A stretch of 64,000 nt of DNA from Ulota crispa (lineage: Eukaryota; Streptophyta; Bryopsida; Orthotrichales; Orthotrichaceae): positions 20,378,358-20,442,357 of the forward strand of contig OY987244.1 of assembly GCA_963920765.1 (NCBI GenBank). Reading direction: 5' to 3'. The notes under the pieces are model-generated. The model had not been told where the DNA came from. It searched no databases and saw only the letters and a program-made list of their open reading frames with translations. Each line of letters begins with the position of its first letter. Positions within the stretch are counted from its first letter, which is position 1. Of the stretch, positions 1 through 49,327 are shown in pieces. The position numbers and the translations under genes are program-made.

Positions 1-214
1 GGTCATGTTAATTATTTTGCAAGGACCCCCTCGCGTGATAAATGTTTGACATAGCTTGGGGACTAAAGTGCGTTGTGTTCAGAAGGCATGTTTTGGTTGT
101 GAGCAATACTACAATTGCATGCAAGAACTCAAATGTAAAAACTGAAATTTTGGCCCAAAAAAATGATAATTCTACACAATTAAAAAGAACCTTCATGGTT
201 GCAATTACAATGTT
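1..214. other. AT-rich flank left of CACTA element A
   Basis: No convincing gene is seen. By the inversion argument (gtt at 212-214 pairs with aac at 8439-8441), this stretch was once continuous with the reverse complement of the DNA just left of 8441, so it is probably the downstream flank of the acidic-protein repeat. Two short opposing open frames here look like chance frames in AT-rich DNA. Confidence 0.4.
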
Positions 215-473
215 CACTAGAAGAAAATTCAGCACAAAATCAACAAAATTTCAACCAAAAACTGTTGATTTTTTCTGTGAATTTGGTCAAGTTGATTTGG
301 GTACTTTTTTGTTGATTTTATGTTGATTTTTTGTTCATTATTTACAATTTTTTGTTAATTTTTTAATGATTTTTGTTACGTATTTTATGTTGTTCAATTC
401 TATTTCTTTTTAATTTTAAATTTCTTTTTTCATAGAATTTTATTTTATTTTATGAAAAAGTGAGCTTTTTAGG

Positions 474-592
474 GGACGGGCAGCTGCCCCAACCGCCGGG
501 TAGCTATCGACAGTGGGGTTTGAACCCCTCACCTCTATCCTCACACTCCACAACTCTATCACATTCTCAAAAACCACTAGAGAATGTGCAAA
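474..592 (-). mobile_element. SINE-like tRNA-derived segment inside element A
   Basis: On the minus strand this GC-richer segment contains GGGGTTCAAACCCC, a good RNA polymerase III B box, preceded by a weak A-box-like TAGTGGTTTTTGAG about 60 bp upstream. The same segment is in element B at 11088-11206, so it was present before A and B separated. No poly(A) tail or target duplication was defined. Confidence 0.45.
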
Positions 593-1100
593 TACACATG
601 CACATAATAATATCATGATTCTATTTGAACATTAAATATTCATGTCTTTAATAATCTAGTAGACTTTAGAGACTATTTCCGTCCATTAAAGGACTCTTTT
701 TCAAAAAACTTAGAACTAAAAAAAGTTGGTAAATGTGCTTTACTTTCACCTCCAACAATTTTTTTTGGATTTCAATCTTTTTATCAAAAGTTAGCTAAAA
801 TCAGAGAAGTTGTTTAGAAATTTTAAATAAATTGTTTATTTCCATCCTTTTGATTTTGTTTATAAACTTTTTTTGGAATTCACAAATCTCATAAGGATTG
901 TTGCATGCAAAGGTTGGATTCATTAATAATCATTATTTAGTGCTAGTTTTTTTTGTAAAAAGAACCTTATTTTGTTAAAATTGCCTCCATAGTTTGATAG
1001 CTTCAAATAACATGAAGTTGTGAAAAGTTATGGAATTAAATCCTTGCAATTATAAAATCAAAATTCTATAGACTTTTGAATAGTTTTGGATATTTTTTAA

Positions 1101-3694
1101 GGGCATTAATATGTGAACCACACCCTTTGAACTACTGTACCACACCCCCGGTGTCTTGATGGAAATATCTCCATCATGTAGATACTCGTTACATATTTAT
1201 GTTTGTGTTGATTTCAATAAATCACCAGTTGAGGCAAAAGGGGTGGTTCGGGTGAGGACCACGGTTTGGTGACAGCGCAGCGGCCATAGATTCCAGTGCG
1301 CTGCGCCGTCTTGTCACATGTACAGCTCAAGGGGGTAAATAGCGGGTTGGCTGGGCCAATTTCCTGCCTCACTAGCTGCCAAGCCGTGAGCCGCTATCAC
1401 CGCTTGACGAGTTCGATGAGATTCAAACCCGGATTAGCGAGCGACCAGAGACGACCGCTTCTCCAACCAACCAAGTCCACGACTTAGCGACTAAAGACAA
1501 GCGTTTGACGCTATTATATGCTCGCAAGGGCACGTGGCCATTTTACGATGGCATTTATTTTGCAATTTAATCATTTTCATATGTTTATCTAGATGTTTTG
1601 GAAGGCTCATATATTTTGCCTTTGTTTGAATAAAAATACTAAGAGTTTAGAAGTCAATGGGAAAGGTGTGAAAGGAAAAAGGATTTGGCATCTATGGTGG
1701 AGTTAGGATAGGGAGGGCATGGGCTGATGTGCCCCACCTCCCTACCTTATATAGGATCAAAATTATGGAGGAAAGATCGTTTAGTTGTTGAAAGTTAGTG
1801 TATGAGTATTGGTGGGAAGAAGGGAAAAAATCCCAAAACTTTAATGTGAGATTTTTTTTTGTGTATGAATGATTTTGAATTGAAATTTGAGGAGGTTGTT
1901 CCTTGTGTGATTACCTTTTCAAAATGAGTTTGCAAGTTTGATTTGGAGTTGTGATGCAAAAGTTATGAATGTTTGAATTTTGGAGTCAAAAAGCCAAACT
2001 ATGAAGAAAGGCTGAGACTTCGACAGGCCATAACTTATGATTTGTATATCATTTTGCAACAAGATTTGGAGAGAGTGTTTATCTTAGTCTTGGCTTTCTA
2101 GAAAGTCTTTAAACTTGAGGTTTAAAGCTTGGAAAATAAAGTTATGGAAGTGTGAAGGTTTGGAGGTGGCTGCCCTTTTGTTAGAAGAAGGCCAAAACTT
2201 TGAAGAACTACAACTTTTGGACAGTATGAGATTTTCTTCTCAAATTTTTAGGAGTGATAGTTTGTTGTTATAACTTTCTTAACTGTCTTTAATCATTTCA
2301 TTTGGAATTTTATTGAAGAAGTTATAATGGGTAGAAGTTGGAGATTTGGATGCTCTCTAAAAAATTAAGACCCACACTTTGATTGACTAGAGCTTTCGGA
2401 CAGAGTTTTATTTTGAAGTGCAAATTTTATAGGTTGTAGCCAGTGATATCATCTTTCTAAATTAATATCACGTTTTTATGGGTGATGTATAGAACAAAAG
2501 TTATAGAGGTTTATAGAGGCAGTGTTTAGTGTGTAAGAAGAAAGAAGAGCCTCTACTTTGAACCCGCATAACTTTTGAACGATATCTCATATTGAGTTGA
2601 AATTTAGAGAGATGTTACAGGGTTAGAAGAGCTTTTCAAATTGCTATTATACTTAGCATTTGAATCTTTGAGCCATCTGTGGCACTAGATAGAAGGCCGC
2701 TGCTTTTCTAGAACTTGTTATTTGTGAGTTTCCTCATTGTTTTTATTAAAACATGAAGATTTGGAGACTTGAAGACATGAAGACTTAAAGATCTGAAAAT
2801 ATGAAGACTTGAAGGTTTGAAGATATGAAGATTTCAAGAGGAATGTTTTGGATTTATTTTTTATGTATGTGTAGGATGTGACTTTGTTATTCCTAGCCGG
2901 TTTTGGAGGCTCGTTTGTCAATTCATTTCCATTCTGTTTTGTAAACCTTGTTGCAAGCAGTTTGGGTTAAATCGAATTTAACCCCATTGTTGTGGTGACG
3001 AAGTGGAATTGATCACCCACATGGTCGAGACTTGCTCTGTTCTCACGATCTGAAGTTTTGGCAAGCAGATCGTGAATTTGATTTTAGTATCCCGTCATAC
3101 GGACGGCAGCTTGTGTCTGCTGTCACGATCTACCCGTCCCGTATCCAATGGGCTCTTATCCCTACCTTGACCATTATACCCTTAGAGCCAGTCACAGGAT
3201 AGGCCAACGAAATACTGAAGACTGAAGATTTGAAGAAAAGATCAAGACTGATGATAATTTTAGTCGGCAATGCACGATCGCAGCAAGACACCCTGCGTGT
3301 TCCCAAGGCGCGCTCCTCTCAACCCGACACTGGAGTAAATTTTAGATTTCTACCATCAAAAATTTGAGTTTGAAAATTTTGAATTCAAATTTGGAGTTAC
3401 AGACCATGATATTGTCTAGGACCATAGAAAAGGTTGCAATTCAATAACACCCAATGAAAAAGCTTATCTTTTTTTACAAACAAAAGTAAAATTAATAATT
3501 TTCTCCCTAACTAAACTTTTTCATTGGGTGTTGTTGAATTGCAACTTTTTTTATGGTTCTAGACAATACCATGGTCTCTAAGTCCAAATCTGAATTCAAA
3601 ATTTTCAAATTCAACTTTTTGATGGTAGAAATCTAGAATTTATCCCGTGATGTGGTATAGTAATTGGAAAGGTGTGGTACACATATCAATTCCC
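1101..3694. mobile_element. Palindromic Mutator-like MITE in element A, split by an LTR-like insertion
   Basis: Its ends (GGGCATTAATATGTG and CACATATCAATTCCC) form a terminal inverted repeat. The flanking 9-mers ATTTTTTAA (1092-1100) and ATCTTTTAA (3695-3703) match at 8 of 9 positions, the target-duplication length of Mutator-like elements. Without the insertion it is 412 bp, the same as the copy in element B. Much of the element is self-complementary. Other copies lie at 10168-10579, 19233-19643 and 30145-30558. Confidence 0.75.
1152..3329. mobile_element. Solo-LTR-like insertion (2,178 bp)
   Basis: Sequence present in element A but absent from the otherwise colinear element B. It starts TGTCTTGATGG and ends AACCCGACA, so it has the TG...CA ends of an LTR with a 4-bp TGTC/GACA inverted repeat. 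CCGG at 1148-1151 and CTGG at 3330-3333 look like a 4-bp target duplication with one C-to-T change at a CpG; element B has a single CCGG at this place. A TATA-like CTTATATAGG at about 1743-1753 fits an LTR promoter. No second terminal repeat and no protein gene are visible inside, hence solo LTR, although a gene-free non-autonomous element is possible. Confidence 0.65.
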
Positions 3695-4548
3695 ATCTTT
3701 TAAAACTTATAAAAATATTTTATAAGATTGTTTTTTTTAGTTCATTTTGTTAGTAATAGAAGGAAAAATACTAAAAATACCCTTTAAGTCTTTCAAAATA
3801 TCAAGTTTATGCCAAAAACATGTGAAACATAAAAAATATTCCTTATTTTTTGTAGGAATATCAATTATACTCCTGTTATTTTGGAAAATTAATAAAAAAA
3901 CTCTTCTATTTTGAAATGTTAAATATATCCTTGTGTTATTTGAAATGTAAAAATCACCTTTGGTTTCTTGTAAGAATTTGCATTAAACTATACACTTGGT
4001 TATCATATAACACAAAGATATTTTTGGTACTTTTAATCCTTAAGGAACATATATGATTTCTTCAAAGAATTGAGGAGCATCTTTTATATTTGTTTGTAAA
4101 GAAATTTTGGCATTTAAAACAACAAAATGTTGTACTTTTTATATAAAATTTTGTTGAATTAGTGAAGTTGTGTCCAAAAGTGTCAAGATCAACAGAAAAC
4201 TATTGATTTTTTTGTTATTATGGTCATGTTTTTACTTGACTTTAAAGGCTGCTAATTTTAAATCTTACCAAATTGTGAAAAGTAAAGAAAATAAAACCAG
4301 TCAATGTACACTCAAACTTCTAAAAGATTCTTTTTTTTTGAAAACTTCTTTTATTTTTTAAAACTTCAAAACATTTTAATGAGGTCCAAAAAGATTCTAG
4401 AAAGATTTCAAAAACAAACCTAAACTATTGTAATAGCTTTTTATTAAAAATATTTTAAAGTATTTTGATGAATTACAAAAAGATTCCTAAAGGACTCTAA
4501 TTCAATCTAAGAGATTCTATTTCTATAAATATTTTGAAGTACTTTAAC

Positions 4549-5270
4549 AAATTTCATAAAGATTTTAAAAAGATTCTCAAAGATTCCAAAAAGGTTCTTG
4601 AAAATTCTCAAAGATTTTCAAAGATTTTTTGGATTTCCAAAAAGATTCTCAAAAGATTTCCAAAGATTCCCAAAGATTCTTAAAGATTCTCAAAGCTTCT
4701 CAAAGCTTCCAGAGAGATTCCAAGATTATTCATAAAGATTTTCAAAAATTCTCAAAAAAATTCAAAATTCCTAGAACATTTCCAAAGATTCTCAAATATT
4801 CCAAACTCTTCTCAAAGATTCCCAAGAATTCTCAAATCTTCCTAAAAGATTCTCAAAGATTCCTAAAAGATTCTCAAAGATTCTCAATTGTTCTCAAACA
4901 TTCTCAAAGATTCCAAAATAACTTGAAAAGATTCTCAAAGATTCTAAAAGATTCTCAAAGATTCCTAAAAGATTCTCAAAGATTCTCAATTGTTCTCAAA
5001 CATTCTCAAAGATTCCAAAATAACTTGAAAAGATTCTCAAAGATTCCAAAAAAACTTGAAATGATTCCCAAATATTTCCAAACATTCTCAAAGATTCCAA
5101 AATAACTTGAAAAGATTCTCAAAGATTCTAAAATCTTGAAAAGATTCTTAAAAATTCTTAAAAATTCTTAAAAATTCTTAAAAGATTCTCAATGATTCCC
5201 AAAAGATTCTTGAAGATTCTTAAAGATTCACAAAAAATTCCCAAAAGATCCTCAAAAGATTCCAAAATTT
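4549..5270. repeat. Degenerate AGATTCTCAA tandem array in element A
   Basis: About 700 bp of imperfect 10-14 bp units built on AAAGATTCTCAAAGATTCC. A longer block of roughly 80-100 bp around 4910-5040 is itself duplicated. The open frame through it (4629-5105) translates to a monotonous Lys/Ser/Phe/Gln repeat and is not taken as a gene. Equivalent arrays lie in element B (8584-9300) and element C (11683-12200). Confidence 0.85.
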
Positions 5271-5423
5271 TTGTTGATTTAGATAATGGTGTCCAAATCA
5301 ATAGAACGTATTTAGTTTTTTACAGAATTTTGTTAAATTAATCAATTAGCGTGGGCAAGTGCCCAAATCAATAAGAAACTATTGGTTTTTTGTTGTTTTG
5401 GAAGGAGTTTTCTACTAGTGTAT

Positions 5424-6151
5424 TTACATTTGAAGTGAAAAAAAAGGTTTCTTTCGTGTCCAAAAAATTTAGAAGCATTTGACCACTCTTACATGAAAAA
5501 TATTGCTCTACACAAAGTTGAGGTTTATTTTTCCATGTAGAAGACCAAGTTAGGGTTGTGTGGAAAAATTTTGAAATCAACTGGAACTATACAACACATG
5601 GGAAAAAATAGTAAGTAATAAGAAATAGAGAATGAGCCAAAACACTAAATTGTTAAGAATTTAATTATAGGAATGAAAAATGCAAATCCCCACCGTTATA
5701 ATGTTGTAATAAACAATCTACTTCCTTACGTTTAGTTCTTTTTTCCAAAATACTAAAAACTGTGGAAAAAAAAGGACTTAAAAGTTTAATTTAGAGTAGA
5801 GGATCCAAAAATGCCCACAAACTAAAACATCTCATTACTTGAAGGGGAATGATTCAAAGCTCCCCACATATGAAAATATCTAAAGAACCAAATTCTGATT
5901 TTTATTTTAAAATATATAAATTTTAAAGACGTTTTTGGGCTACCCGGATTGCCCTCCCACCCTCAAGCAGTAGAAATTCTTGCATAACTTCTTTGTCAAA
6001 TGTCAAAATGAAGAATACATTAAATTCCCATAAAGATTTTTGAATTCCTCATCTTCCATAAAAGTTTCAAAAAATTACACAAAGTAGTTTAGCCATAGGT
6101 ACATGCTCAAAATCCAAATTGTCCCCCAAAGGGACAACGGTCCTCTAGCGG
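5424..6151. mobile_element. Larger fragment of a TTAA-flanked element, displaced by inversion
   Basis: The sequence resembles 17864-18454 read in reverse (for example the parts around 5441-5620 and 6040-6150). The right end is GTCCTCTAGCGG followed by TTGA (6152-6155), a decayed TTAA. The rest of the same element lies at 11469-11525 and 14567-14656. The pieces are separated because CACTA elements B and C inserted into it and the segment 5421-8441 was then inverted. About 310 bp at roughly 5635-5945 has no counterpart in the 17.9-kb copy and may be a further insertion. Confidence 0.6.
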
Positions 6152-6423
6152 TTGAAGGCAAGGTTCATGAACGATAACTTTTTGTATTTGATTTTTCATC
6201 TACCAATCTAAAATAAAAGGTTAATTGTTCTTTTACTTTTCATCTAGCAATGTCAACCATTACATTCATCAAGCATTTTTCTTTTACTTTTAGTCCACCA
6301 ATACAAATCACAAAGATCAATGGATGAATATTTTACCTTTTACTTTTCATCTTCCAAGACAAAAAACAATACTTTGGGATGAAAAAGAAATGACATTTTA
6401 CTTTTCCCTCCCTAAATCTATTT

Positions 6424-6435
6424 TCTATATAAACC
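6424..6435 (+). promoter_or_regulatory. TATA box of the acidic-protein gene, copy 1
   Basis: TCTATATAAACC lies about 140 bp upstream of the ATG at 6570. It is kept in copy 2 at 46725-46735. Because it sits inside the longer open frame that begins at 6324, it argues that translation starts at 6570 and that the upstream frame is promoter and leader. Confidence 0.55.
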
Positions 6436-6569
6436 ATCAACCATTCCTTTTACTATTCACTTCTCATGTCCCATGTTTCCTTCAAATTACTACATCTCTT
6501 GTGTTTACATCTCTTGTGTTTTACTTAGAGTTGTTTAAGAGCTTTTGTGTATTCACGCAATTATTTACC

Positions 6570-7691
6570 ATGGGGATGCCACCAAAGAAGAGAGCTATTG
6601 AAGATAAGGAGACAAGTAAGGAAAAGATGAAGAGAAAGAAAGGTAATACAAATGTGAGGATACTCAAATGGTCAGAAAGTGCAACAAGTGACCATATTAA
6701 GTCATTGCCAAAAGAATGTCCGGATTTCAATTCCGGACTGCACACTTTTTGGATGTTTGTCAATAAAAGTGTATCTCAACCTGGCTATAAATGCTTAAAC
6801 AAGGATTGCCCTAGAGAAGCCTACACTATTGGGGGCAAGACCTTTCCTATAAAGAAGAAAGTTAGTGATACCCAATTAACTAGAATTTCCCGCCCTTGCA
6901 AAACCAAAGGAAAAAATGCTAGGAACACTACAAGCAAAGATTGGCAAAGCACAAGCTTTTACTCATTGGCTAACAAAGTCCAAGTTACCACAATAATTGA
7001 AACTGAAGCAAGTAATCTTGAAGAACAAGAAGCATTTGACATTCTAGAAGTCTTTGATTTTGGGGAGAGTGATACTCAAGATAGTACAGATGACGAAACA
7101 AGTACGGATGATGAAACAAGCACGGATGACGAAACAAGCACAGATGACAAAACAAGCACGGATGACGAAACAAGTATGGACGATGAAAGTGGTTTGGATG
7201 ATGAACATGATGATGAAGACAATCCAAACGATGAAAGCAGTTTGAATGAAGACGAACGTTTGGAACATAGAAATGGTGCTGGTGACGAGGCCACCAAAGG
7301 CATATTGTATATGGATGAGAAATGCCATTTGGATGACAGTTTGGAAGCGGGCATCGACAAAAATGCTGATGTGGATATTGAGGGCATTTTTGATGAGGAT
7401 GTTGAAGAGAGGTTTTACAACAGTGACGATACGAATATGGAAGGCAACTTGGATGATAAAGGCAAATTGAATGAAAATGGGCTCAAAGTGAGGAGGATGA
7501 CAAATGAAGAAAAAGAGGCTGCAGATGCAATTTGTGAAGATTATTGTTATTTAGATGAATTTGTTGATGAAGAGGGTGTAGAAGTAGAACATTTTGTTTT
7601 TGTTGAGTATATGGATGAGTCTATGGATGAAGATGAAGGAACAAGTATTGAGAGAGATTCAAAATCTTATCAAAGTTTCCTGCTAATTTAA
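6570..7691 (+). CDS. Transposon-associated acidic nuclear-type protein, copy 1 (373 aa, unknown function)
   Basis: I do not recognise this protein. The start at 6570 is chosen because ACCATGG is a strong start context and a TATA box lies about 140 bp upstream; the frame is open back to 6324, but that part encodes an unlikely hydrophobic stretch over the promoter. Visible parts are: a lysine-rich N-terminus (residues 4-26, PPKKRAIEDK then KMKRKKG) resembling a nuclear localisation signal; four cysteines at about 50, 75, 80 and 110 that could bind metal; five STDDET-type hexapeptide repeats at about 172-201; and a very Asp/Glu-rich C-terminal half. It is intronless in this reading. The copy at 46871-47992 encodes the same 373 residues. 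It could be an accessory protein of a transposon or a captured host gene fragment; no transposase motif is visible. Confidence 0.6.
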   Translation: MGMPPKKRAIEDKETSKEKMKRKKGNTNVRILKWSESATSDHIKSLPKECPDFNSGLHTFWMFVNKSVSQPGYKCLNKDCPREAYTIGGKTFPIKKKVSDTQLTRISRPCKTKGKNARNTTSKDWQSTSFYSLANKVQVTTIIETEASNLEEQEAFDILEVFDFGESDTQDSTDDETSTDDETSTDDETSTDDKTSTDDETSMDDESGLDDEHDDEDNPNDESSLNEDERLEHRNGAGDEATKGILYMDEKCHLDDSLEAGIDKNADVDIEGIFDEDVEERFYNSDDTNMEGNLDDKGKLNENGLKVRRMTNEEKEAADAICEDYCYLDEFVDEEGVEVEHFVFVEYMDESMDEDEGTSIERDSKSYQSFLLI

Positions 7692-8583
7692 TGACAAAGT
7701 TTTGTTATTTATGCATATTCAAGACATTTACATCATGTCCATTTAAGGATAGATCATGAAAATTCAAATATTTACAAGTTACTAAGATGAATTTTTGGCA
7801 CGCAAAAATAGGGAGTGAGCTCTTGTATATATGTGTGTATATATGTATATTATTTTATTTTTGAATCCATTTTATTGATGTGAATACAATTATTGCAAGA
7901 AATTATTTTGTTGCATTTTGTTTGAAGTTTAAACAAGATTTTAGAGTTGATATACTACATGTTCTTTAAATTGTTACCTTTTCATTGAGTTTTTTAATTA
8001 GCTTTATAGTATTGTTTGATTAGATGTAGCCTTCAATCTTCATTGATCTAGTTGAAATCATCTATGGTCTCTATGTATTTGTCTGGTACTTGTTTTCATG
8101 TGTTCTTGTTTTACCTTGTGATTTTGAGGTTTCAACCAATACATTCTTTTTGTATATGTGTGATGGATTATGTATTTATTTTTGTTAAAAATTAGTTTTG
8201 TTCCTTGTTTACAATTATTTTGAAACTATTTTGAGGGGTAAAAAAGTGATTCATGTATTTCTTCCAAAGTGTTGGGTCACAATAAGATACAAGGAAATGA
8301 GATGTTGCTTGGTGACACAAATACCTAGTCTCTAATTTTGACACTTGGGATTTGAACCATGATTATTATGTACTTCAAAAAGTAATGGGTCACAAAAATT
8401 ATATTGTATTTCTTATGATTTTCTAAGAAAGAAAATTGAACCACTAGTAGAAAACTCCTTCCAAAACAACAAAAAACCAATAGTTTCTTATTGATTTGGG
8501 CACTTGCCCACGCTAATTGATTAATTTAACAAAATTCTGTAAAAAACTAAATACGTTCTATTGATTTGGACACCATTATCTAA

Positions 8584-9300
8584 ATCAACAAAAATTTTGG
8601 AATCTTTTGAGGATCTTTTGGGAATTTTTTGTGAATCTTTAAGAATCTTCAAGAATCTTTTGGGAATCATTGAGAATCTTTTAAGAATTTTTAAGAATTT
8701 TTAAGAATTTTTAAGAATCTTTTCAAGATTTTAGAATCTTTGAGAATCTTTTCAAGTTATTTTGGAATCTTTGAGAATGTTTGGAAATATTTGGGAATCA
8801 TTTCAAGTTTTTTTGGAATCTTTGAGAATCTTTTCAAGTTATTTTGGAATCTTTGAGAATGTTTGAGAACAATTGAGAATCTTTGAGAATCTTTTAGGAA
8901 TCTTTGAGAATCTTTTAGAATCTTTGAGAATCTTTTCAAGTTATTTTGGAATCTTTGAGAATGTTTGAGAACAATTGAGAATCTTTGAGAATCTTTTAGG
9001 AATCTTTGAGAATCTTTTAGGAAGATTTGAGAATTCTTGGGAATCTTTGAGAAGAGTTTGGAATATTTGAGAATCTTTGGAAATGTTCTAGGAATTTTGA
9101 ATTTTTTTGAGAATTTTTGAAAATCTTTATGAATAATCTTGGAATCTCTCTGGAAGCTTTGAGAAGCTTTGAGAATCTTTAAGAATCTTTGGGAATCTTT
9201 GGAAATCTTTTGAGAATCTTTTTGGAAATCCAAAAAATCTTTGAAAATCTTTGAGAATTTTCAAGAACCTTTTTAGAATCTTTGAGAATCTTTTTAAAAT
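8584..9300. repeat. Degenerate AGAATCTTTGAGAATC tandem array in element B
   Basis: Reverse-complement counterpart of 4549-5270, with the same internal block duplication. The minus-strand open frame 8757-9233 has the same low-complexity translation as in A and is not considered a gene. Confidence 0.85.
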
Positions 9301-10167
9301 CTTTATGAAATTTGTTAAAGTACTTCAAAATATTTATAGAAATAGAATCTCTTAGATTGAATTAGAGTCCTTTAGGAATCTTTTTGTAATTCATCAAAAT
9401 ACTTTAAAATATTTTTAATAAAAAGCTATTACAATAGTTTAGGTTTGTTTTTGAAATCTTTCTAGAATCTTTTTGGACCTCATTAAAATGTTTTGAAGTT
9501 TTAAAAAATAAAAGAAGTTTTCAAAAAAAAAGAATCTTTTAGAAGTTTGAGTGTACATTGACTGGTTTTATTTTCTTTACTTTTCACAATTTGGTAAGAT
9601 TTAAAATTAGCAGCCTTTAAAGTCAAGTAAAAACATGACCATAATAACAAAAAAATCAATAGTTTTCTGTTGATCTTGACACTTTTGGACACAACTTCAC
9701 TAATTCAACAAAATTTTATATAAAAAGTACAACATTTTGTTGTTTTAAATGCCAAAATTTCTTTACAAACAAATATAAAAGATGCTCCTCAATTCTTTGA
9801 AGAAATCATATATGTTCCTTAAGGATTAAAAGTACCAAAAATATCTTTGTGTTATATGATAACCAAGTGTATAGTTTAATGCAAATTCTTACAAGAAACC
9901 AAAGGTGATTTTTACATTTCAAATAACACAAGGATATATTTAACATTTCAAAATAGAAGAGTTTTTTTATTAATTTTCCAAAATAACAGGAGTATAATTG
10001 ATATTCCTACAAAAAATAAGGAATATTTTTTATGTTTCACATGTTTTTGGCATAAACTTGATATTTTGAAAGACTTAAAGGGTATTTTTAGTATTTTTCC
10101 TTCTATTACTAACAAAATGAACTAAAAAAAACAATCTTATAAAATATTTTTATAAGTTTTAAAAGAT

Positions 10168-10579
10168 GGGAATTGATATGTGTACCACACCTTTCCAATT
10201 ACTATACCACATCACGGGATAAATTCTAGATTTCTACCATCAAAAAGTTGAATTTGAAAATTTTGAATTCAGATTTGGACTTAGAGACCATGGTATTGTC
10301 TAGAACCATAAAAAAAGTTGCAATTCAACAACACCCAATGAAAAAGTTTAGTTAGGGAGAAAATTATTAATTTTACTTTTGTTTGTAAAAAAAGATAAGC
10401 TTTTTCATTGGGTGTTATTGAATTGCAACCTTTTCTATGGTCCTAGACAATATCATGGTCTGTAACTCCAAATTTGAATTCAAAATTTTCAAACTCAAAT
10501 TTTTGATGGTAGAAATCTAAAATTTACTCCGGGGATGTGGTACAGTAGTTCAAAGGGTGTGGTTCACATATTAATGCCC
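10168..10579. mobile_element. Palindromic Mutator-like MITE in element B (412 bp)
   Basis: Ends are GGGAATTGATATGTGTACC and an inward-reading GGGCATTAATATG. Flanking 9-mers TTAAAAGAT (10159-10167) and TTAAAAAAT (10580-10588) match at 8 of 9. The two halves are largely self-complementary around a centre near 10370. This is the intact form of the MITE that is split in element A. Confidence 0.75.
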
Positions 10580-11087
10580 TTAAAAAATATCCAAAACTAT
10601 TCAAAAGTCTATAGAATTTTGATTTTATAATTGCAAGGATTTAATTCCATAACTTTTCACAACTTCATGTTATTTGAAGCTATCAAACTATGGAGGCAAT
10701 TTTAACAAAATAAGGTTCTTTTTACAAAAAAAACTAGCACTAAATAATGATTATTAATGAATCCAACCTTTGCATGCAACAATCCTTATGAGATTTGTGA
10801 ATTCCAAAAAAAGTTTATAAACAAAATCAAAAGGATGGAAATAAACAATTTATTTAAAATTTCTAAACAGCTTCTCTGATTTTAGCTAACTTTTGATAAA
10901 AAGATTGAAATCCAAAAAAAATTGTTGGAGGTGAAAGTAAAGCACATTTACCAACTTTTTTTAGTTCTAAGTTTTTTGAAAAAGAGTCCTTTAATGGACG
11001 GAAATAGTCTCTAAAGTCTACTAGATTATTAAAGACATGAATATTTAATGTTCAAATAGAATCATGATATTATTATGTGCATGTGTA

Positions 11088-11206
11088 TTTGCACATTCTC
11101 TAGTGGTTTTTGAGAATGTGATAGAGTTGTGGAGTGTGAGGATAGAGGTGAGGGGTTCAAACCCCACTGTCGATAGCTACCCGGCGGTTGGGGCAGCTGC
11201 CCGTCC
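11088..11206 (+). mobile_element. SINE-like tRNA-derived segment inside element B
   Basis: Plus-strand counterpart of 474-592 with B box GGGGTTCAAACCCC at about 11153-11166. It shares the GC-rich tail GGCGGTTGGGGCAGCTGCCC. Confidence 0.45.
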
Positions 11207-11468
11207 CCTAAAAAGCTCACTTTTTCATAAAATAAAATAAAATTCTATGAAAAAAGAAATTTAAAATTAAAAAGAAATAGAATTGAACAACATAAAATAC
11301 GTAACAAAAATCATTAAAAAATTAACAAAAAATTGTAAATAATGAACAAAAAATCAACATAAAATCAACAAAAAAGTACCCAAATCAACTTGACCAAATT
11401 CACAGAAAAAATCAACAGTTTTTGGTTGAAATTTTGTTGATTTTGTGCTGAATTTTCTTCTAGTGATA

Positions 11469-11525
11469 TCTCCCTCCACTCCATCTAGAATGACTTGATT
11501 TTTTTCCCACAAGTACCTCTTCTAG
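11469..11525. mobile_element. Small fragment of the split TTAA-flanked element between CACTA B and C
   Basis: The 57 bp between the right flank of element B and the left flank of element C matches 18287-18333 of the intact relative, including the shared CAAGTACCTC. It is the piece of the host element left between the two CACTA insertions. Confidence 0.55.
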
Positions 11526-11682
11526 CTCTAGTAGAAAACTCTGTCCAAAGCAACAGAAAAGCAACAATTTCTTGTTGCTATGGGCACTTGCACATTCTAA
11601 TTGACTAGTTTAACAGAATTCTGTAAAAAACTACTTAAGTTATGTTGATTTGGACACCATTGTTTAAATCAACAAAAAAATC

Positions 11683-12200
11683 AGAATCTTTCAAAGTCTC
11701 TTTTGGAATCTTTGAAAATCTTTTGAGAAACTTAAAGAATATTTTTGGAATCTTTGAGAATTTTAAAGAATGGTTGAGAATCTTTTCAAAATTTGGAAAT
11801 CTTTTGAGAATCTTTTTGGAATCTTGAGAATCTTCAAGACTATTTGAGAATCTTTTCAAAAGTCTAAGAATCAATGAAAATCTTTTGGGAATCTCAAAGA
11901 ATCTTTTTGAAATCTTTGAAAATCTTTGAGAATTTTTTCAAAATTTTTGAAAATCTTTAAGAATCTTTTGAAATATATTGAGATTCTTTTAGAATATTTG
12001 AGAATCTTTGAAAATCATTTAGGAATTTCTTTGAATTTTTGAGAATCTTTGAGATTCTTCTTAGAATCTTCTTGGAATCTTTGACTCTTTTAGGAATCTT
12101 TGAAAATCTTTCAAGGATTTTTGAGAATCTTTGAGAACCTTCAAGAATCTTCTTAAAATCTTTGAGAATCTTTGGAATCCTTGAGATTCTTCAAATCTTT
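11683..12200. repeat. Degenerate AGAATCTTTGAGAATC tandem array in element C
   Basis: The same type of 10-14 bp imperfect repeat as in A and B, but with more scrambled units. The short open frames crossing it on both strands are low-complexity and are not called as genes. Confidence 0.75.
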
Positions 12201-14116
12201 AAGAATATTTTTTTAATATTTTTGGAATTCATTCAAATACTTCAAAATCTTTATAATAATAGAATCATCTAGAATCTTTTTAGAATCTTTTAAAAATTAT
12301 TTAAATTCTTCAAAATCATATATGTATAAACCCTTATAATCTTTTTAGAGTTTTTTTGAACTTCATTGGAATATATTAAAATTTTAAAAAATGAAAGAAT
12401 ATTTCAAATCTTTTTAGAATCTTCTAGAGTTCTTGTTGTATATTGAATTTTTTTTCTTCACTTTTCAAAGTTTGACATGATTTGAAATTAGTGGACTTTA
12501 AAGTCTACTAAAAAATGCATGTTTATGAAAACTTGGTTTTTTGATGTTGTTTTGGTCGTGTTAATTGAGTTCACTTTTTTGTTGAAATCAGTAGGTTTTT
12601 GTTTAGATTACTAGATTTTTGTCCAAGTCAACAATAAAGTGAACTCAATCAACGCAGTCAAAATAACAGAAGAAACCCAAGTTTCTACTAGTGATGACCG
12701 AAACAACACAAAATTAATAGTTTCTTGTTGATTTTGGACACTTTTGGACACAACTTGACTAATTCAACAAAATTTCATATAGAACATACAACATTTTATT
12801 GTATTAGATACCACAATTTTTTATGAAAAAATAAACAAAAATGCCATTCAATATGTTGAAAGAATCAAATACATCCCTCAAAGATCAATTTAAATTATCA
12901 AAAATACCCTTGGCTTTTTGAAAAAATATTAAATGTACCCCTAATATTTTGGATAATATTAAAAATGCTCCTCAACTATTTTGATTTATCAAATATATCC
13001 ATGTTTTATTTGAAAAATATTTTTTACCTTTGGTTTTGTGTAAAAATGCTAGTTAATCTTTATTCTTGGATTTTGAAAATACCATAAATATTTCTAGGTT
13101 TCTTTTGCCTTATTATTGCAATTTTATTTTAATTATTTATAAAAAAAAAACACTAAGCAAGTTAATGCAATAGTTTTTGCAATGATAAATCTATATGCAA
13201 AAATTTTGCAAAGAGTTTGAACAACTTGACTATAAGATTGAGTTTACATTTAACTTGATTCTAGTTCTTGTAATTTTTGTTGTCATTCTAGTAATTACAA
13301 ATACTGGTAATAAAAAACAGTGAATTATGGGAACTTCCAAAATCCTCAAAAATAACCAAGGGTATATAGTTTAACTGATATACTTACATAAAACCAAAGG
13401 TAGTTTTTATACTAGAAATAACACAAGAGTACTTTTTATATTTCAAAATAAAAGAGCATTTTTGGTATTATCTCAAAACGCTAGGGGTGTAGTTGATATT
13501 CCTACAAAAAGCAAGAGTATTTTTGATATTTTCAATTCTATTATTAACCAAATCAACAAAAAAATTAATCCCTTCTGAAATATATTTGGAATCTCTAAAA
13601 AAGATTCAAATATCTTCAAAATATTATAGAATCTTATTTAATCTTTTGGATCCATTTGAAATTTTGATTGTATAATTGCAAGGTTTTTGTTTCAGTAACT
13701 ATTCAAAATTTGATGTTTTTTAAAGCTAGCAAACTATAGAGGCTATTTTCACGTAATAGGAGTTTTGTTTTCACAAAAAATTAAACTTAGATTTTTTTAA
13801 AGAAATGAAGCCAACCTTCTCTTGTAACAATCATTTTGAGATTTATATATTCCAACAAAAAGTTATAAAGTAATATCAAAATGGTGGGGGAAATAAATAA
13901 TTTTGTACAAATTTCTGAACCCCCACTTTGATTTTTGCTCATAACTTTTGATTCAAGATCTGAAAGTTGAGAAAAATTGTTGGAGGTGACAGAAGACTAC
14001 ATTTTCCAACTTTTTGTAGTTTTATGTTTTTTGAAAAAAAAATCCTTTACTATGTCAAAATAGCCTTCAAACAAAAGTTAAAACTATACAAGTAAGTTTT
14101 CAAAGACTATGTATGT

Positions 14117-14240
14117 ATGAACCCGTTGGGGGTGGTGTGGTGGATGGGGTTGTGATCTCCCACCCACAAGGTGGAGGGTTTGAACCCTATCCCAGCATGT
14201 CTGACCGGTTGGTTTGGTGACTATGACCAGCTGCACCGGT
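14117..14240 (+). mobile_element. SINE-like tRNA-derived segment inside element C
   Basis: A GC-rich island containing GTGGTGTGGTGGATGGGG (A-box-like D-arm region) and, about 50 bp later, GGAGGGTTTGAACCCTATCC (B box in a T-arm-like hairpin). The spacing resembles a tRNA gene. It differs from the SINE-like segment of elements A and B. Confidence 0.4.
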
Positions 14241-14566
14241 AGGCCGCCATGGGTCCGAGGGTTTCCAGATGGCAACCATGGCTAGTTTGTGGTTTCTAGA
14301 TGGTAGCCTCGGCTGGTTTTTCACCGGCTAAGGGCTGATATTGTCAAATTTTTCTAAATTTTTAAAAATAAAAATTCTTATTGAAAAAAACAACAAATAA
14401 GTATCATAAAAACAACAAAAAATCAACACAAAACAATAGAAATTAGCAGAAATCAACAAACCCTTGTTAAAAAGTATCCAAACTAACACATCCAAAGCAA
14501 TAAAAAAAATCAAGAGTTTGTAATTGATTTTCTGTTGATTTTGCATTAATTTTTCTAATAGTGTAG

Positions 14567-14656
14567 TCTAAGGCAAGATCTTACGATTGGAGTTCCCAAA
14601 AAAGAAAAAAAAACCTACCTTTTTACTCATCCCCTAGAAATGGCAATTTTTAAGGG
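14567..14656. mobile_element. End fragment of the split TTAA-flanked element
   Basis: Ends in AAGGG followed by TTAA at 14657-14660, and resembles 18336-18454 (shared AGCAAGATCTTAC, CATCCCC and TTTTCAATG-like parts). With 5424-6151 and 11469-11525 it rebuilds one element of very roughly 870 bp. Confidence 0.55.
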
Positions 14657-14660
14657 TTAA

Positions 14661-14757
14661 AACAACTAACATGTAGTGTTGTTGTTTAGGCATTCACTTG
14701 ATTTAAAAAGAGACAAGCAAGTTGTTAGGTTTGCGAGTGGTGTGCATAATGGCAACA
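14661..14757 (-). repeat. Displaced left extension of the acidic-protein repeat, copy 1
   Basis: Its reverse complement matches 46357-46452, the sequence immediately left of the TTAA empty site at 46453-46456 in copy 2. In copy 1 it is separated from the rest of the repeat by the TTAA-flanked element, by CACTA B and C, and by the inversion. Confidence 0.65.
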
Positions 14758-14759
14758 AT

Positions 14760-17859: not shown

Positions 17860-17863
17860 TTAA

Positions 17864-18454
17864 TCCCTAAAGGACCATTGTCCCTTTGAGGGACAAATCA
17901 AATTTTGGGAATGTATCTATGGCTAAACTATTATGCATGATTTTTTGAAACTTTTATTGAAGGTGAGGAATTCAAAGATCTAAGTGGGAATGTAATTTTT
18001 TCTTCATTCCGACATTTATTGAAGAAGTTATGCATGAAAATCTAGAAAATGCCGCTCCCCCTCGTTCTCTACTTTGTACTTACCAATTTTTCCCATGTGT
18101 TGTATAGTTTCAATTGATTTGAAAATTCTCCCACACATACCTAACTTGGTCTCTTACATGGGAAAAGAAAACCTCAACTTAGCATAGAGCAATTTTTTTG
18201 ATATAGGAGTGGTCAACAGCTTTTGAAATTTTTGGACAGTACAAAAAAAAACTTTTTTCTTCACTTCACATGTAAATATCTCACTCTTTTTCATTTGGAA
18301 TAAGCTCATTTTTTATTCCCAAGTACCTCATACTGTGCAGAGCAAGATCTTACAGATAGATTTATAAAAATAAAAAAAGTACCATTCCTTTCATCCCCCA
18401 AAAGTTGCAGTTTTCAATGTTTTTCCTAAAGAAAGGGGCCTAGTCCTCTAGGGG
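17864..18454. mobile_element. TTAA-flanked piggyBac-like element (591 bp), intact reference copy
   Basis: TTAA at 17860-17863 and 18455-18458 flank ends that read inward as TCCCTAAAGGACCATTG and CCCCTAGAGGACTAGGCCCC. A TTAA duplication with CCC-starting inverted repeats is the piggyBac hallmark. It is too short to encode a transposase. It matters because its uninterrupted CACATGTAAATATCTCACTC (near 18275) shows what 5421-5440 and 11466-11480 looked like before CACTA B inserted and the inversion took place. Confidence 0.6.
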
Positions 18455-18458
18455 TTAA

Positions 18459-19643: not shown

Positions 19644-19652
19644 TTTTATTTT

Positions 19653-30135: not shown

Positions 30136-30144
30136 CCATACTAA

Positions 30145-31001: not shown

Positions 31002-31916
31002 CCCCTAATGGCCTAAGGAGCCCACTTTGGGCTTTATGAGAACTCGAGCAGGCTCTATTGACTTCATAATTTGGAATTTTTTCATGAAGTTTTTAGGATG
31101 GATGCTACTCATCATAATCTACATGTGAAGCTTTATTTCATGTCATTCTGATAAGTATTGCAAAAGTTATAAGGTTTTTTCAATTTCAATGTCAAACCAG
31201 GCAGCAAAAAATATATTCTATATTCTTATTTTTATTTTTTGTAGAATTTTATAGATTGATACCTACTCAATAAATGTCGAATCACTCAATTCCAAATAAT
31301 CAGGTTAGAGTTAAAAGGAATTTTATTTTGCAGGCAATGAAGGTAGGAAGAGGGTAGAAAAAACATATAAAGTTATTTTTTACTCTCAATTTTGAAAACA
31401 TTCAAATGAAAATGAAAAAATTAAAGTTATAAATTGTCTATTAGAGCATTCTCACCATTGGGATTAACAATTTTCAAATTCTTCCAAAACTTATTAGCAT
31501 ATTATTTATATCTTTCATTCATCAATACCTTTCACTTTACAATTTTTGTAAAAATGAATCCAAATTCTTTTTTGGTCAAGTTTTTTAATATATGCTTTCA
31601 ACCCATTTTCCAACATATTGCCAAAATTGCACAAGAAATGCAACATACGAATTTTTCTCTAAAAAGTTTGAAAAACAATATTTCACCTTTTGGAAGGACT
31701 AGAAAAGTCTACATTTTGAAGTTTAGGCACATCGATCTTGCAATTGGTGGGGATATTCATTTTGAAATTTTGGGGCAATGTACTTGTGCAAGTCAACCAA
31801 AAGATCCTACGGTTGGATTTGTTAAGAAGTAAGTTTCAATGAAGATTTTGACCTTGGTTTGGGGACTAGTGTTTTGAAGCAGTTTTGGGCCTCTAAACAC
31901 AAAAGAATTTTAGGGG
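31002..31916. mobile_element. TTAA-flanked element (915 bp)
   Basis: TTAA (30998-31001) then CCCCTAATGGCCTAAGGAGC. The right end TTTTAGGGG is followed by TTTA (31917-31920), a likely decayed TTAA shared with the next element, which begins immediately with CCCCTAAAGAACC. The plus-strand open frame 31434-31832 inside it is AT-biased and shows no domain. Confidence 0.45.
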
Positions 31917-31920
31917 TTTA

Positions 31921-45614: not shown

Positions 45615-46356
45615 TAAATGTATATTATAAAGCTCATCCCCTTTTACTACAGTATTACCAACTCCCTTGTCTCATTTGTTCATAATTCATAGATTTGATT
45701 GGAGTTGAATAGATTTAGTGAACCTTTTAATCCAATAACTTTAACTCATCTACTCATTTGGTTTATTTATACAATTTATTGGGGTTGGGTAGACTTAATT
45801 AAATTTTAACCCTTGTTACTAAGTTCTATGTATAGATTTGATTAGATTTATCAACCAAATGTATAAGTGATTAAAATTTAGACCCGTCTAAATGTTTCAT
45901 AGTCCCTTTTTGGATGGTGGACAAAGTGCTTGCTTGAATATTCAAATAGTGACTTGTCTTACTGAATCAACAAGTTGAAATTGAAGTAAATGATAGTTTT
46001 GTTCATATCTTTTAGAGAAAGTATGTAAAAATATCCCTGAAAAAAATGCTAGAATTTAGAAATGGAATATGACACTACAAGGTTAAGAGAGGTTACACTT
46101 ACTCCTAAAGATCGTTTGTACAACAAACTCAAACAATGAGGGTCTTGCAAGCTAGACTTGCAGCGTGCAAGGTTGAACATCTTGAGCACACTAGCTCCAT
46201 AATAATGATCATTTTTTGTAAAAAAAAGTAAATATTATAATTCAAGTGGAAGGGTCACTTTGTCTAACTCTTGTACTCAAAGATAATTATAATGACCAAC
46301 ATTTTTGTACTCAAGCTTGTTGGAGAAAAAGTTGAACTATTATATGAAATTAAATG
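45615..46356. other. AT-rich DNA without a recognisable gene
   Basis: Nothing supported between the short inverted-repeat element and the left limit of the acidic-protein repeat. Confidence 0.45.
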
Positions 46357-46724
46357 GTTGCCATTACGCACACCATTGGCAAACCTAACAAATTACTTGT
46401 CTCTTTTTAAATCAAGTGAATGCTCAAACAACAACACTACATGCCGGTTGTTTTAATGGCAAGGTTCATGAATGTTAACTTTTTGTATTTGTTTTCTCAT
46501 TTACCAATCTAAAATAAAAGGTTATTTATTTTTTTACTTTTCATCCACCAATGTCAACCATTACATTCATCAAGCATTTTTCTTTTACTTTTAGTCCACC
46601 AATACAAATCACAAAGATCAATGGATGAATATTTTACCTTTTACTTTTCACCTTCCAGGTCAAAAAACAATACTTTGGGATGAAAAAGAAATGACATTTT
46701 ACTTTTCCCTCCCTAAATCTATTT

Positions 46725-46735
46725 TCTATATAAAC
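46725..46735 (+). promoter_or_regulatory. TATA box of the acidic-protein gene, copy 2
   Basis: TCTATATAAAC, conserved with copy 1 (6424-6435), about 140 bp upstream of the ATG at 46871. Confidence 0.55.
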
Positions 46736-46870
46736 TATCAACCATTCCTTTTACTATTCACTTCTCATGTCCCATGTTTCTTTGAAATTACTACATCTCT
46801 TGTGTTTACATCTCTTGTGTTTTACTTAGAGTTGTTTAAGAGCTTTTGTGTATTCACGCAATTATTTACC

Positions 46871-47992
46871 ATGGGGATGCCACCAAAGAAGAGAGCTATT
46901 GAAGATAAGGAGACAAGTAAGGAAAAGATGAAGAGAAAGAAAGGTAATACAAATGTGAGGATACTCAAATGGTCAGAAAGTGCAACAAGTGACCATATTA
47001 AGTCATTGCCAAAAGAATGTCCGGATTTCAATTCCGGACTGCACACTTTTTGGATGTTTGTCAATAAAAGTGTATCTCAACCTGGCTATAAATGCTTAAA
47101 CAAGGATTGCCCTAGAGAAGCCTACACTATTGGGGGCAAGACCTTTCCTATAAAGAAGAAAGTTAGTGATACCCAATTAACTAGAATTTCCCGCCCTTGC
47201 AAAACCAAAGGAAAAAATGCTAGGAACACTACAAGCAAAGATTGGCAAAGCACAAGCTTTTACTCATTGGCTAACAAAGTCCAAGTTACCACAATAATTG
47301 AAACTGAAGCAAGTAATCTTGAAGAACAAGAAGCATTTGACATTCTAGAAGTCTTTGATTTTGGGGAGAGTGATACTCAAGATAGTACAGATGACGAAAC
47401 AAGTACGGATGATGAAACAAGCACGGATGACGAAACAAGCACAGATGACAAAACAAGCACGGATGACGAAACAAGTATGGACGATGAAAGTGGTTTGGAT
47501 GATGAACATGATGATGAAGACAATCCAAACGATGAAAGCAGTTTGAATGAAGACGAACGTTTGGAACATAGAAATGGTGCTGGTGACGAGGCCACCAAAG
47601 GCATATTGTATATGGATGAGAAATGCCATTTGGATGACAGTTTGGAAGCGGGCATCGACAAAAATGCTGATGTGGATATTGAGGGCATTTTTGATGAGGA
47701 TGTTGAAGAGAGGTTTTACAACAGTGACGATACGAATATGGAAGGCAACTTGGATGATAAAGGCAAATTGAATGAAAATGGGCTCAAAGTGAGGAGGATG
47801 ACAAATGAAGAAAAAGAGGCTGCAGATGCAATTTGTGAAGATTATTGTTATTTAGATGAATTTGTTGATGAAGAGGGTGTAGAAGTAGAACATTTTGTTT
47901 TTGTTGAGTATATGGATGAGTCTATGGATGAAGATGAAGGAACAAGTATTGAGAGAGATTCAAAATCTTATCAAAGTTTCCTGCTAATTTAA
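46871..47992 (+). CDS. Transposon-associated acidic nuclear-type protein, copy 2 (373 aa, unknown function)
   Basis: Identical in residue sequence to the product of 6570-7691 from the ACCATGG start onward; the only protein differences in the long frame are in the presumed leader before the start. It has the same lysine-rich N-terminus, cysteines at about 50, 75, 80 and 110, five STDDET-type repeats, and a long acidic C-terminal half ending DSKSYQSFLLI. The unbroken frame in both copies, plus a conserved TATA box, suggests the gene is or was recently functional. Function unknown; the acidic tail suggests a chromatin or DNA-mimic type of role only by analogy. Confidence 0.6.
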   Translation: MGMPPKKRAIEDKETSKEKMKRKKGNTNVRILKWSESATSDHIKSLPKECPDFNSGLHTFWMFVNKSVSQPGYKCLNKDCPREAYTIGGKTFPIKKKVSDTQLTRISRPCKTKGKNARNTTSKDWQSTSFYSLANKVQVTTIIETEASNLEEQEAFDILEVFDFGESDTQDSTDDETSTDDETSTDDETSTDDKTSTDDETSMDDESGLDDEHDDEDNPNDESSLNEDERLEHRNGAGDEATKGILYMDEKCHLDDSLEAGIDKNADVDIEGIFDEDVEERFYNSDDTNMEGNLDDKGKLNENGLKVRRMTNEEKEAADAICEDYCYLDEFVDEEGVEVEHFVFVEYMDESMDEDEGTSIERDSKSYQSFLLI

Positions 47993-48233
47993 TGACAAAG
48001 TTTTGTTATTTATGCATATTCAAGACATTTACATCATGTCCATTTAAGGATAGATCATGAAAATTCAAATATTTACAAGTTACTAAGATGAATTTTTGGC
48101 ACGCAAAAATAGGGAGTGAGCTCTTGTATATATGTGTGTATATATGTATATTATTTTATTTTTGAATCCATTTTATTGATGTGAATACAATTATTGCAAG
48201 AAATTATTTTGTTGCATTTTGTTTGAAGTTTAA

Positions 48234-48873
48234 CCCCTACATGCCCATGGCCTTGCTGAACTTCTTGGCATTTTCAGAAAAGTGAAGAATCAACCAACCT
48301 TTTCATAAATCTCATCAAGTTTTTTTAAACTATAACCGTACAAATTTAAACTTGTCATGTTAGAAATTACATGGAAAAAGAAAACACAACAATATCATTT
48401 ATAGTTTGAAAGATTATAATGTTTGAACATGAGGGTGTAAAAACTATAAAAGTGACTTGAAGTCTTCTAATCCTCATTTCAAATGTCAAATCTAAAAACT
48501 AAGTCATCAAAAAAATATGAGGTTTAAGGTCATTACATGTTCAAACTCAACCAATTTATGACTTTCAAAATCTACTCATGTATTAGTTTTAATTGGATTT
48601 CTAATTCGGATTTTTCTCCAAGCTCTAGTGTATTTAAGGCTTCAAGATCTTCCAACACTAGAAAACTCAAGATTGCAATGGACACCTTTGTACAAAATTT
48701 TGAATAGAAAAATCATGAACTTTCGTTTTTAAAATCAGATTTTTGATATTGATAGTAGACTTCAAAACAAACTTGTATTCAAAAGAAAATACCAAAAATA
48801 GTGATTTGATAAGATTTAATTTGTGTTCAAAGTTTTGCAAACACCCAAATTGGGTGCCTTAGGCATGTAGGGG
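48234..48873. mobile_element. TTAA-flanked piggyBac-like element (640 bp) with a proven empty site
   Basis: Inserted in copy 2 only. Ends read CCCCTACATGCCCATGGCC and CCCCTACATGCCTAAGGCACC inward, with TTAA at 48230-48233 and 48874-48877. Copy 1 has GAAGTTTAAACAAG with one TTAA at 7929-7932, so the insertion duplicated exactly TTAA and added 640 bp. This is the best evidence in the window for TTAA-targeted transposition by the CCCCTA family. No transposase coding is seen. Confidence 0.8.
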
Positions 48874-49327
48874 TTAAACAAGATTTTTGAGTTGATGTAC
48901 TACATGTTCTTTGAATTGTTACCTTTTCATTGAGTTTTTTTATTAGCTTTATAGTATTTTTTGGTTAGATGTAGCCTTCAATCTTCATTGATCTAGTTGA
49001 AATCATCTATGGTCTCTATGTACTTGTCTTGGTACTTGTTTTCAAGTGTTCTTGTTTTACCTTAGCAATTTGAGGTTTCAACCAATGCATTCTTGTTGTA
49101 TATGTGTGATGGATTACATATTTCCTTTTGTTAAAAAATAGTTTTATTCCTTGTTTACAATTGTTTTGAAACTATTTTGAGGGATGAAAAAGTGGTTCAT
49201 GTATTTCTTCCAAAGTGTTGGGTCACAATAAGCTACAAGGAAATGAGATGTTGCTTGGTGACACAAATATCTAGTCTCCAGTTTTGACACTTGGGATTTG
49301 AACTTCATGATTATTGTGTAATCTGGA

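What the first reader, a model, noticed from the sequence alone, without database searches (positions are those of the whole stretch)
212..11468. Swapped target duplications show that two inverted CACTA copies recombined and flipped the 3 kb between them
Element A is flanked by gtt (212-214) and tat (5421-5423), and element B by aac (8439-8441) and ata (11466-11468). Neither element has matching flanks, but gtt pairs with aac and tat with ata in reverse complement. Flipping 5421-8441 restores two perfect 3-bp CACTA duplications. Independently, joining the reverse complement of 5421-5440 to 11466 recreates CAAATGTAAATATCTCCCTC, which is uninterrupted as CACATGTAAATATCTCACTC at about 18275 in a related element. 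This is strong internal evidence for transposon-mediated inversion of a gene-bearing segment.
Basis: partly seen in the sequence, partly recalled or inferred. Interest (0 to 1): 0.75.

Follow-up and report, generated by a model that had tools for sequence, protein, structure and literature searches.

The report
Inverted transposons that flipped plant DNA
Two mirror-image copies of an old jumping gene appear to have recombined and turned around the 3,000 DNA letters between them; the same scar was found at two more places in this plant genome, so such flips may be common in it.

Summary
A (215-5420) and B (8442-11465) are inverted copies of a non-autonomous CACTA family (about 700 hits for each terminus). 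Each has mismatched 3-bp flanks; flipping 5421-8441 restores both duplications.

Paralogues show the unflipped order: the B site at 17862-18456, the A site in a chromosome-C9 relative (70% identity), the pre-insertion order in a copy at 46354-49320, and the left flank in a copy about 150 kb away.

Two more inverted pairs of the family have swapped duplications, with paralogue support for both. In pair F the arms differ towards both ends but share a 1,759-bp identical core, a homologous-recombination tract. That argues against aberrant transposition there and makes an assembly flip unlikely.

Best explanation: ectopic recombination between inverted copies, with gene conversion homogenising the arms. 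Of five inverted linked pairs examined, three are swapped, and these have the three shortest spacers. The kind of event is known (Galileo in Drosophila; human inverted repeats). New here are the CACTA case in a probable moss, its repetition in one genome, and a strong hairpin in the arms that lies inside the tract in 3 of 3 partly homogenised pairs. No reads or related individuals could be examined.

The parts
212..214 (.). 3-bp flank gtt, left of A; partner of 8439-8441 (aac)
215..5420 (-). CACTA element A (5,206 bp; about 3.03 kb without the nested LTR)
   Evidence: CACTAG termini
1152..3329 (+). solo LTR nested in A only, 4-bp duplication ccgg (1148-1151) / ctgg (3330-3333)
   Evidence: 5 relatives read have 4-bp duplications (4 exact, 1 with one mismatch) of form NCGN; some listed copies stand in pairs about 8.4 kb apart as in a full LTR retrotransposon
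5421..5423 (.). flank tat, right of A; partner of 11466-11468 (ata)
5421..8441 (.). inverted segment, 3,021 bp
   Evidence: colinear with paralogues only when reverse-complemented
5421..6156 (-). part of TTAA-flanked element X that was carried along by the inversion
6570..7691 (+). 373-aa ORF inside the inverted segment; sub-threshold Dof-like zinc ribbon match only
8439..8441 (.). flank aac, left of B
8442..11465 (+). CACTA element B, 3,024 bp
10215..10531 (.). internal palindrome of B (arms 10215-10350 / 10396-10531), strong predicted hairpin; also present in A
   Evidence: z = -21.5 against 100 shuffles
11466..11468 (.). flank ata, right of B
11466..11525 (+). second part of element X
11526..14563 (+). 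third, diverged CACTA element C inserted in X; flanks tag/tag read directly from the sequence
14567..14659 (+). third part of element X
17862..18456 (+). relative of X without A, B or C: shows the unflipped, empty B site (near 18275)
46354..49320 (+). second copy of the segment in the unflipped order: RC(14657-14759) directly joined to 6157-; lacks X, A, B and C, holds another insert (about 48234-48873)
31063..31918 (-). paralogue that shows the unflipped, empty E2 site of the second swapped pair (on C1)

Best explanation
A and B are two insertions of one non-autonomous CACTA family that lay in opposite orientation 3 kb apart. Homologous (non-allelic, probably within one chromosome or between sister chromatids) recombination between them ended once, or an odd number of times, in a crossover and turned the segment 5421-8441 around. 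That exchanged the inner halves of the two target duplications. Gene conversion between the same arms, with or without crossover, kept or made them 99.9% alike, while their nearest relatives elsewhere are 90-94% alike. Shown: swapped duplications and unflipped order in paralogues, at three pairs; a sharp identity tract inside otherwise diverged arms at pair F. Inferred: crossover as the event, conversion as the cause of the A/B identity. More speculative: recurrence, and the hairpin-forming palindrome in each element as the place where breaks start.
For: A/B: exact swapped flanks; X colinear with 17862-18456 only when unflipped; the restored A junction aligns without interruption over 741 bp (70%) to L046 on C9, while in present order the match falls into two pieces on opposite strands; L041 (C3) carries left flank and segment in unflipped order; the 46-kb copy joins RC(14657-) to 6157-. 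Pair E (C1): AAG[E1]TTA...CTT[E2]TAA; restored E1 site is an in-phase 22-bp tandem array; restored E2 site aligns over 856 bp at 88.6% to window 31063-31918, gapless over the 437 bp around the junction. Pair F (C3): GAT[F1]TTG...ATC[F2]CAA; 38 of 38 non-self places listed run through the restored F1 junction, and 33 of 40 non-self rows listed run through the restored F2 junction with at least 10 bases on each side. F arms: 76 mismatches in 2,791 aligned bp, nearly all in the outer parts, with one 1,759-bp identical run. Identity runs amid divergence also at L028/L035 (1,945 bp) and L029/L031 (865 bp), but no long run at L014/L037 or L011/L025 (longest 178 and 100 bp). No near-identical unlinked copy listed for 4 of 4 members used as queries (best 90-94%).
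Against: No read data, so the assembly is taken on trust; pair E contains a 200-base run of N and a duplicated spacer, which shows that the assembly is troubled at such a place. A/B are too alike to show chimerism, the Galileo-type proof of recombination. The E2 flank reading depends on a mutated terminal base. The junction counts come from the best 40 of 730 and 570 candidates and so favour long matches; the L046 match is only 70%. One unlinked pair (L014/L037) is 97% alike. Conversion of A/B is inferred: I first took the long private branch of the solo LTR as proof that A is older than its likeness to B (67 of 2,133 sites private, branch 5.3%), but the two LTRs of another element (L055/L056) are 99.8% alike although their common branch is 3.3% long, so that dating is weak.
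Confidence: 0.85

Rival explanations
1. Aberrant transposition (hybrid element insertion): ends of two sister copies of one element insert together at a nearby target, which inverts the DNA between and leaves two identical copies with exchanged duplications. The inversion and the birth of copy B would be one event.
For: Predicts identical copies and exchanged duplications, as at A/B (4 differences) and E1/E2 (2,944 bp identical); model described in PMC2775673 (section 10 part 1).
Against: Pair F has swapped duplications but arms that differ towards both ends around an identical core. E1/E2 differ only in the outermost 16 bp. Recently active transposase should also leave near-identical copies elsewhere, and 4 of 4 searches listed none (40 best candidates scored each). 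A solo LTR sits in A and not in B. It is not excluded for A/B taken alone.
Confidence: 0.08
2. Assembly flip: the real chromosome has the unflipped order and the assembler turned the segment around inside the near-identical arms.
For: Arms of 2.1 and 0.9 kb are nearly identical; pair E shows an assembly break inside such a structure. The sequencing technology of this assembly is unknown; a moss of similar size, Hypnum curvifolium (262 Mb), was assembled from 10x linked reads (table passage of PMC13120521).
Against: No N in the 64-kb window. Arms of F differ towards both ends, so reads of a few kb resolve it. Three of the five inverted pairs examined would have to be flipped wrongly.
Confidence: 0.09
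3. Recent local transposition made the two copies and an unrelated two-break event inverted exactly the DNA between them.
For: The most alike pairs in the sample are linked ones.
Against: Breakpoints would have to fall exactly at or in both elements, three times over.
Confidence: 0.01

Closest known systems
Galileo-mediated inversions of Drosophila buzzatii (PMC2775673; section 10 part 1 and passages read)
   Same: Two copies of one DNA transposon in opposite orientation at the breakpoints, with exchanged target duplications; ectopic recombination inferred
   Different: There: P-element superfamily, large inversions polymorphic in populations, uninverted chromosomes sequenced, chimeric copies shown. 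Here: CACTA, spacers of 0.9-3 kb, three pairs in one assembly, order shown by paralogues, arms partly or wholly homogenised
Human inversions between inverted repeats, e.g. FLNA/EMD (PMC3961182; passages read)
   Same: Segments between inverted repeats, turned around by recombination, with high recurrence
   Different: Arms there are largely segmental duplications; here they are transposon insertions whose halves are labelled by target duplications; recurrence not shown here
Maize Ac/fAc alternative transposition inversions (PMC8225341; passages read)
   Same: Transposon pair at inversion breakpoints
   Different: Those carry newly made target duplications; the paper says that NAHR inversions instead carry inverted, usually non-identical duplications, which is what is seen here

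Membership tests
CACTA (EnSpm) DNA transposon superfamily | Termini CACTA...TAGTG | tested here: met
   (695 and 716 hits with up to 3 mismatches, 0 in reversed-pattern controls)
CACTA (EnSpm) DNA transposon superfamily | 3-bp target site duplication | tested here: met
   22 of 28 exact, 5 one mismatch, 1 two
CACTA (EnSpm) DNA transposon superfamily | En/Spm-type transposase, in the element or in an autonomous relative | not tested
   A and B hold no ORF of 110 aa or more except one repetitive 158-aa frame each; no genome search for the transposase was made
Inversion by ectopic recombination between transposons (Galileo type) | Same family in opposite orientation at both breakpoints | tested here: met
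Inversion by ectopic recombination between transposons (Galileo type) | Exchanged target duplications | tested here: met
   3 of 5 inverted linked pairs examined: A/B, E1/E2, F1/F2; not L028/L035 nor L011/L025
Inversion by ectopic recombination between transposons (Galileo type) | Uninverted order at an empty target elsewhere | tested here: met
   by paralogues, not by an allelic uninverted chromosome
Inversion by ectopic recombination between transposons (Galileo type) | Chimeric copies | tested here: inconclusive
   A/B too alike; F has a core tract but no parental copies to assign halves to
Hybrid element insertion | The two copies identical along their whole length | tested here: not met
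   met within 4 differences for A/B outside the LTR, not met for F
Recurrent (flip-flop) inverted-repeat inversion | Both orientations found among individuals | not testable with these tools
   one assembly only

The most novel reading that the evidence does not exclude
In this probable moss, inverted CACTA pairs a few kilobases apart are standing inversion switches. Break-prone hairpins inside each arm start homologous repair so often that the arms evolve in concert and the orientation of the DNA between them is near equilibrium, so both orientations should exist among individuals or even within one plant.
Probability: 0.25. Interest if true: 0.72.

Novelty: new member of a known kind. Interest (0 to 1): 0.5.

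Why it matters
Target duplications label the halves of each element, so a linked inverted pair becomes a readable record of whether a crossover happened. With roughly 700 copies in one genome this gives a natural assay of ectopic recombination and conversion tract length. The plastid gene points to a moss. Physcomitrella is described as unique among plants in supporting facile gene targeting by homologous recombination (start of the abstract of PMC4990234 as listed), so a genome-wide footprint of such repair in a moss would be informative. It also warns that small inversions between transposons are easily missed or mis-assembled.

Tried and rejected
Dating A by its solo LTR: looked decisive, weakened by L055/L056, so I do not rest the conversion claim on it. 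Single explanation by aberrant transposition: fits A/B and E alone, fails at F. Naming the species: no named plant collection was available; in the part of the table seen no size equals 274.8 Mb (Funaria hygrometrica 280/314, Hypnum curvifolium 262), and I name none. Print searches, judged from titles and starts of abstracts of the papers listed: exchanged or swapped duplications returned 2 papers, both on Drosophila; CACTA plus inversion terms (15 of 18 listed), inverted repeats plus recurrent inversion (12 of 32), ectopic conversion plus palindrome (10 of 11), moss plus CACTA plus inversion (4 of 4), Physcomitrella plus conversion (10 of 94) and bryophyte terms (8 of 101) showed no such case in a moss. 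Two further candidate inverted pairs (C3:33.99/34.01 Mb; C1:2.81 Mb) were seen but not examined.
Full report
Observation. A (215-5420) and B (8442-11465) are inverted copies with CACTAG termini. Their 3-bp flanks do not match within either element (gtt/tat and aac/ata) but match exactly across elements in reverse complement. A differs from RC(B) at 810, 1145, 3331 and 4587 only, apart from a nested stretch 1152-3329 found only in A. That stretch is a solo LTR: the 5 relatives read have 4-bp duplications of form NCGN (4 exact, 1 with one mismatch), and some listed copies stand as pairs about 8.4 kb apart.

Family. Patterns for the two termini, with up to 3 mismatches, hit 695 and 716 places, with no hit for the reversed patterns, so the family has roughly 700 copies. 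Of 28 relatives with both ends read, 22 have exact duplications, 5 have one mismatch and 1 has two. Among all 378 pairs of these 28, none shows the A/B pattern of own mismatch with cross-match. The best relatives outside the own pair are 91-92% identical to B by BLAST (93.8% for B and 93.9% for A in the multiple alignment of 32 elements), 90-91% to E2, 93-94% to L012 and 91-93% to L033, partial matches included. Each search scored the 40 best of more than 4,000 candidates.

Tests of the unflipped order at A/B. (1) B site: element X, read as RC(6156-5421) + 11469-11525 + 14567-14659, aligns colinearly with 17862-18456, which has no CACTA copy; X carries an internal stretch of about 320 bp that this relative lacks. 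(2) A site: left flank + RC(segment) aligns over 741 bp at 70% to L046 on C9 across the restored junction; in the present order the same locus matches in two pieces on opposite strands. (3) L041, a copy about 150 kb upstream, carries left flank (window -1589 to -1265) and RC(segment) on one strand; it lacks about 1.5 kb between them. (4) The copy at 46354-49320 joins RC(14657-14759) directly to 6157-, i.e. the site before X, A, B and C, in unflipped order.

Second pair, E, on C1. E1 and E2 lie inverted with an 878-bp spacer and are identical over 2,944 bp; their differences sit in the outermost 16 bp. Flanks are AAG[E1]TTA and CTT[E2]TAA (the last depends on one mutated terminal base). Unflipping restores an in-phase 22-bp tandem array at E1 and, at E2, an 856-bp alignment (88.6%, gapless over the 437 bp around the junction) to window 31063-31918; in the present order that match breaks into opposite strands. 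The place holds 200 N and the spacer twice, so its assembly needs care.

Third pair, F, on C3 (21000917-21003709 and 21005995-21008927; spacer 2,285 bp). It was picked because its two members both ranked among the hits and lie close together. Flanks are GAT[F1]TTG and ATC[F2]CAA. The restored F1 junction is crossed in 38 of 38 non-self places listed, and the restored F2 junction in 33 of 40 non-self rows listed with at least 10 bases on each side (only the best 40 of 730 and 570 candidates were scored, which favours long matches). F1 and F2 differ at 76 of 2,791 aligned sites, nearly all in the outer parts, around one identical run of 1,759 bp. Hybrid element insertion predicts copies identical throughout and so fails here.

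Pairs without the scar. L028/L035 (inverted, about 6 kb apart, C6) and L011/L025 (inverted, about 20 kb apart, C1) are not swapped. L028/L035 has a 1,945-bp identical run next to diverged sequence; L011/L025 is 91% alike with no identical run over 100 bp. The direct pair L029/L031 has an 865-bp identical run amid divergence; the unlinked pair L014/L037 is 97% alike with no run over 178 bp. So long identity runs were seen in linked pairs, and 3 of 5 inverted linked pairs examined are swapped. The sample was found through similarity to four queries and is not a census; two other candidates were not examined.

Mechanism. Crossover between inverted copies explains swapped duplications, unflipped paralogues and identity tracts together. 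Conversion explains A/B and E identity in a family for which no recent dispersal was seen. Two of the four A/B differences lie within 7 bp of the solo LTR edges, as expected if conversion stops at heterology; two sites are few. B holds a palindrome (10215-10531) with a very stable predicted hairpin (-109 kcal/mol, z = -21.5), also present in A. In 3 of 3 partly homogenised pairs (F, L028/L035, L029/L031) the longest identical run covers it; with runs this long that is suggestive only.

Segment content. The 373-aa ORF (6570-7691) has only a sub-threshold Dof-like match. Its protein is 100% identical at 46-48 kb; the matches in L041 and L042 hold 4 and 2 stops. The inversion carries the ORF with about 400 bp of the upstream sequence that it shares with the 46-kb copy.

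Organism. PsaB from the 112.5-kb contig C157 matches best the PDB entries 7ksq, 6l35 and 8htu, which I recall as Physcomitrium photosystem I; hence 'probable moss'. Species and chromosome number are not known.

Literature. Galileo (PMC2775673) is the closest match and states the test used here; maize work (PMC8225341) says how the marks of NAHR differ from those of alternative transposition; human inverted-repeat inversions (PMC3961182) show recurrence. The kind of event is known; a CACTA case in a moss was not found in the searches listed under Tried and rejected.

Noticed in passing
6484-7932 and 46785-48233: The two copies of the ORF segment are identical over 1,449 bp but about 93-95% alike on either side (all 16 mismatches of 6157-7932 lie in 6172-6483; 92.8% beyond 7929): a likely conversion tract between direct copies 40 kb apart.
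   Followed up: partly
48234-48873: About 640-bp insert with TTAA duplication and inverted ends CCCCTACATGCC in the second copy; the identity tract stops at it.
   Followed up: no
17862-18456; 5421-6156 + 11466-11525 + 14567-14659: TTAA-flanked element family X with ends near CCCCTAGAGGAC, a target type I recall for piggyBac-like or Kolobok elements; superfamily not tested.
   Followed up: no
19238-19645 and 30143-30552: Stand-alone relatives of the palindrome carried inside the CACTA copies examined: a foldback element perhaps captured by the CACTA family before it spread.
   Followed up: partly
L050-L056; 1152-3329: LTR retrotransposon family with about 2.15-kb LTRs and 4-bp duplications of form NCGN (5 relatives read; L050 shows acgt/atgt): apparent CpG-centred target preference.
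   Followed up: partly
L048:4999-5492: A 200-base run of N, probably a scaffold gap, with the spacer present on both sides inside an inverted near-identical pair; may be an assembly artefact or a sign of both orientations in the DNA sample.
   Followed up: partly
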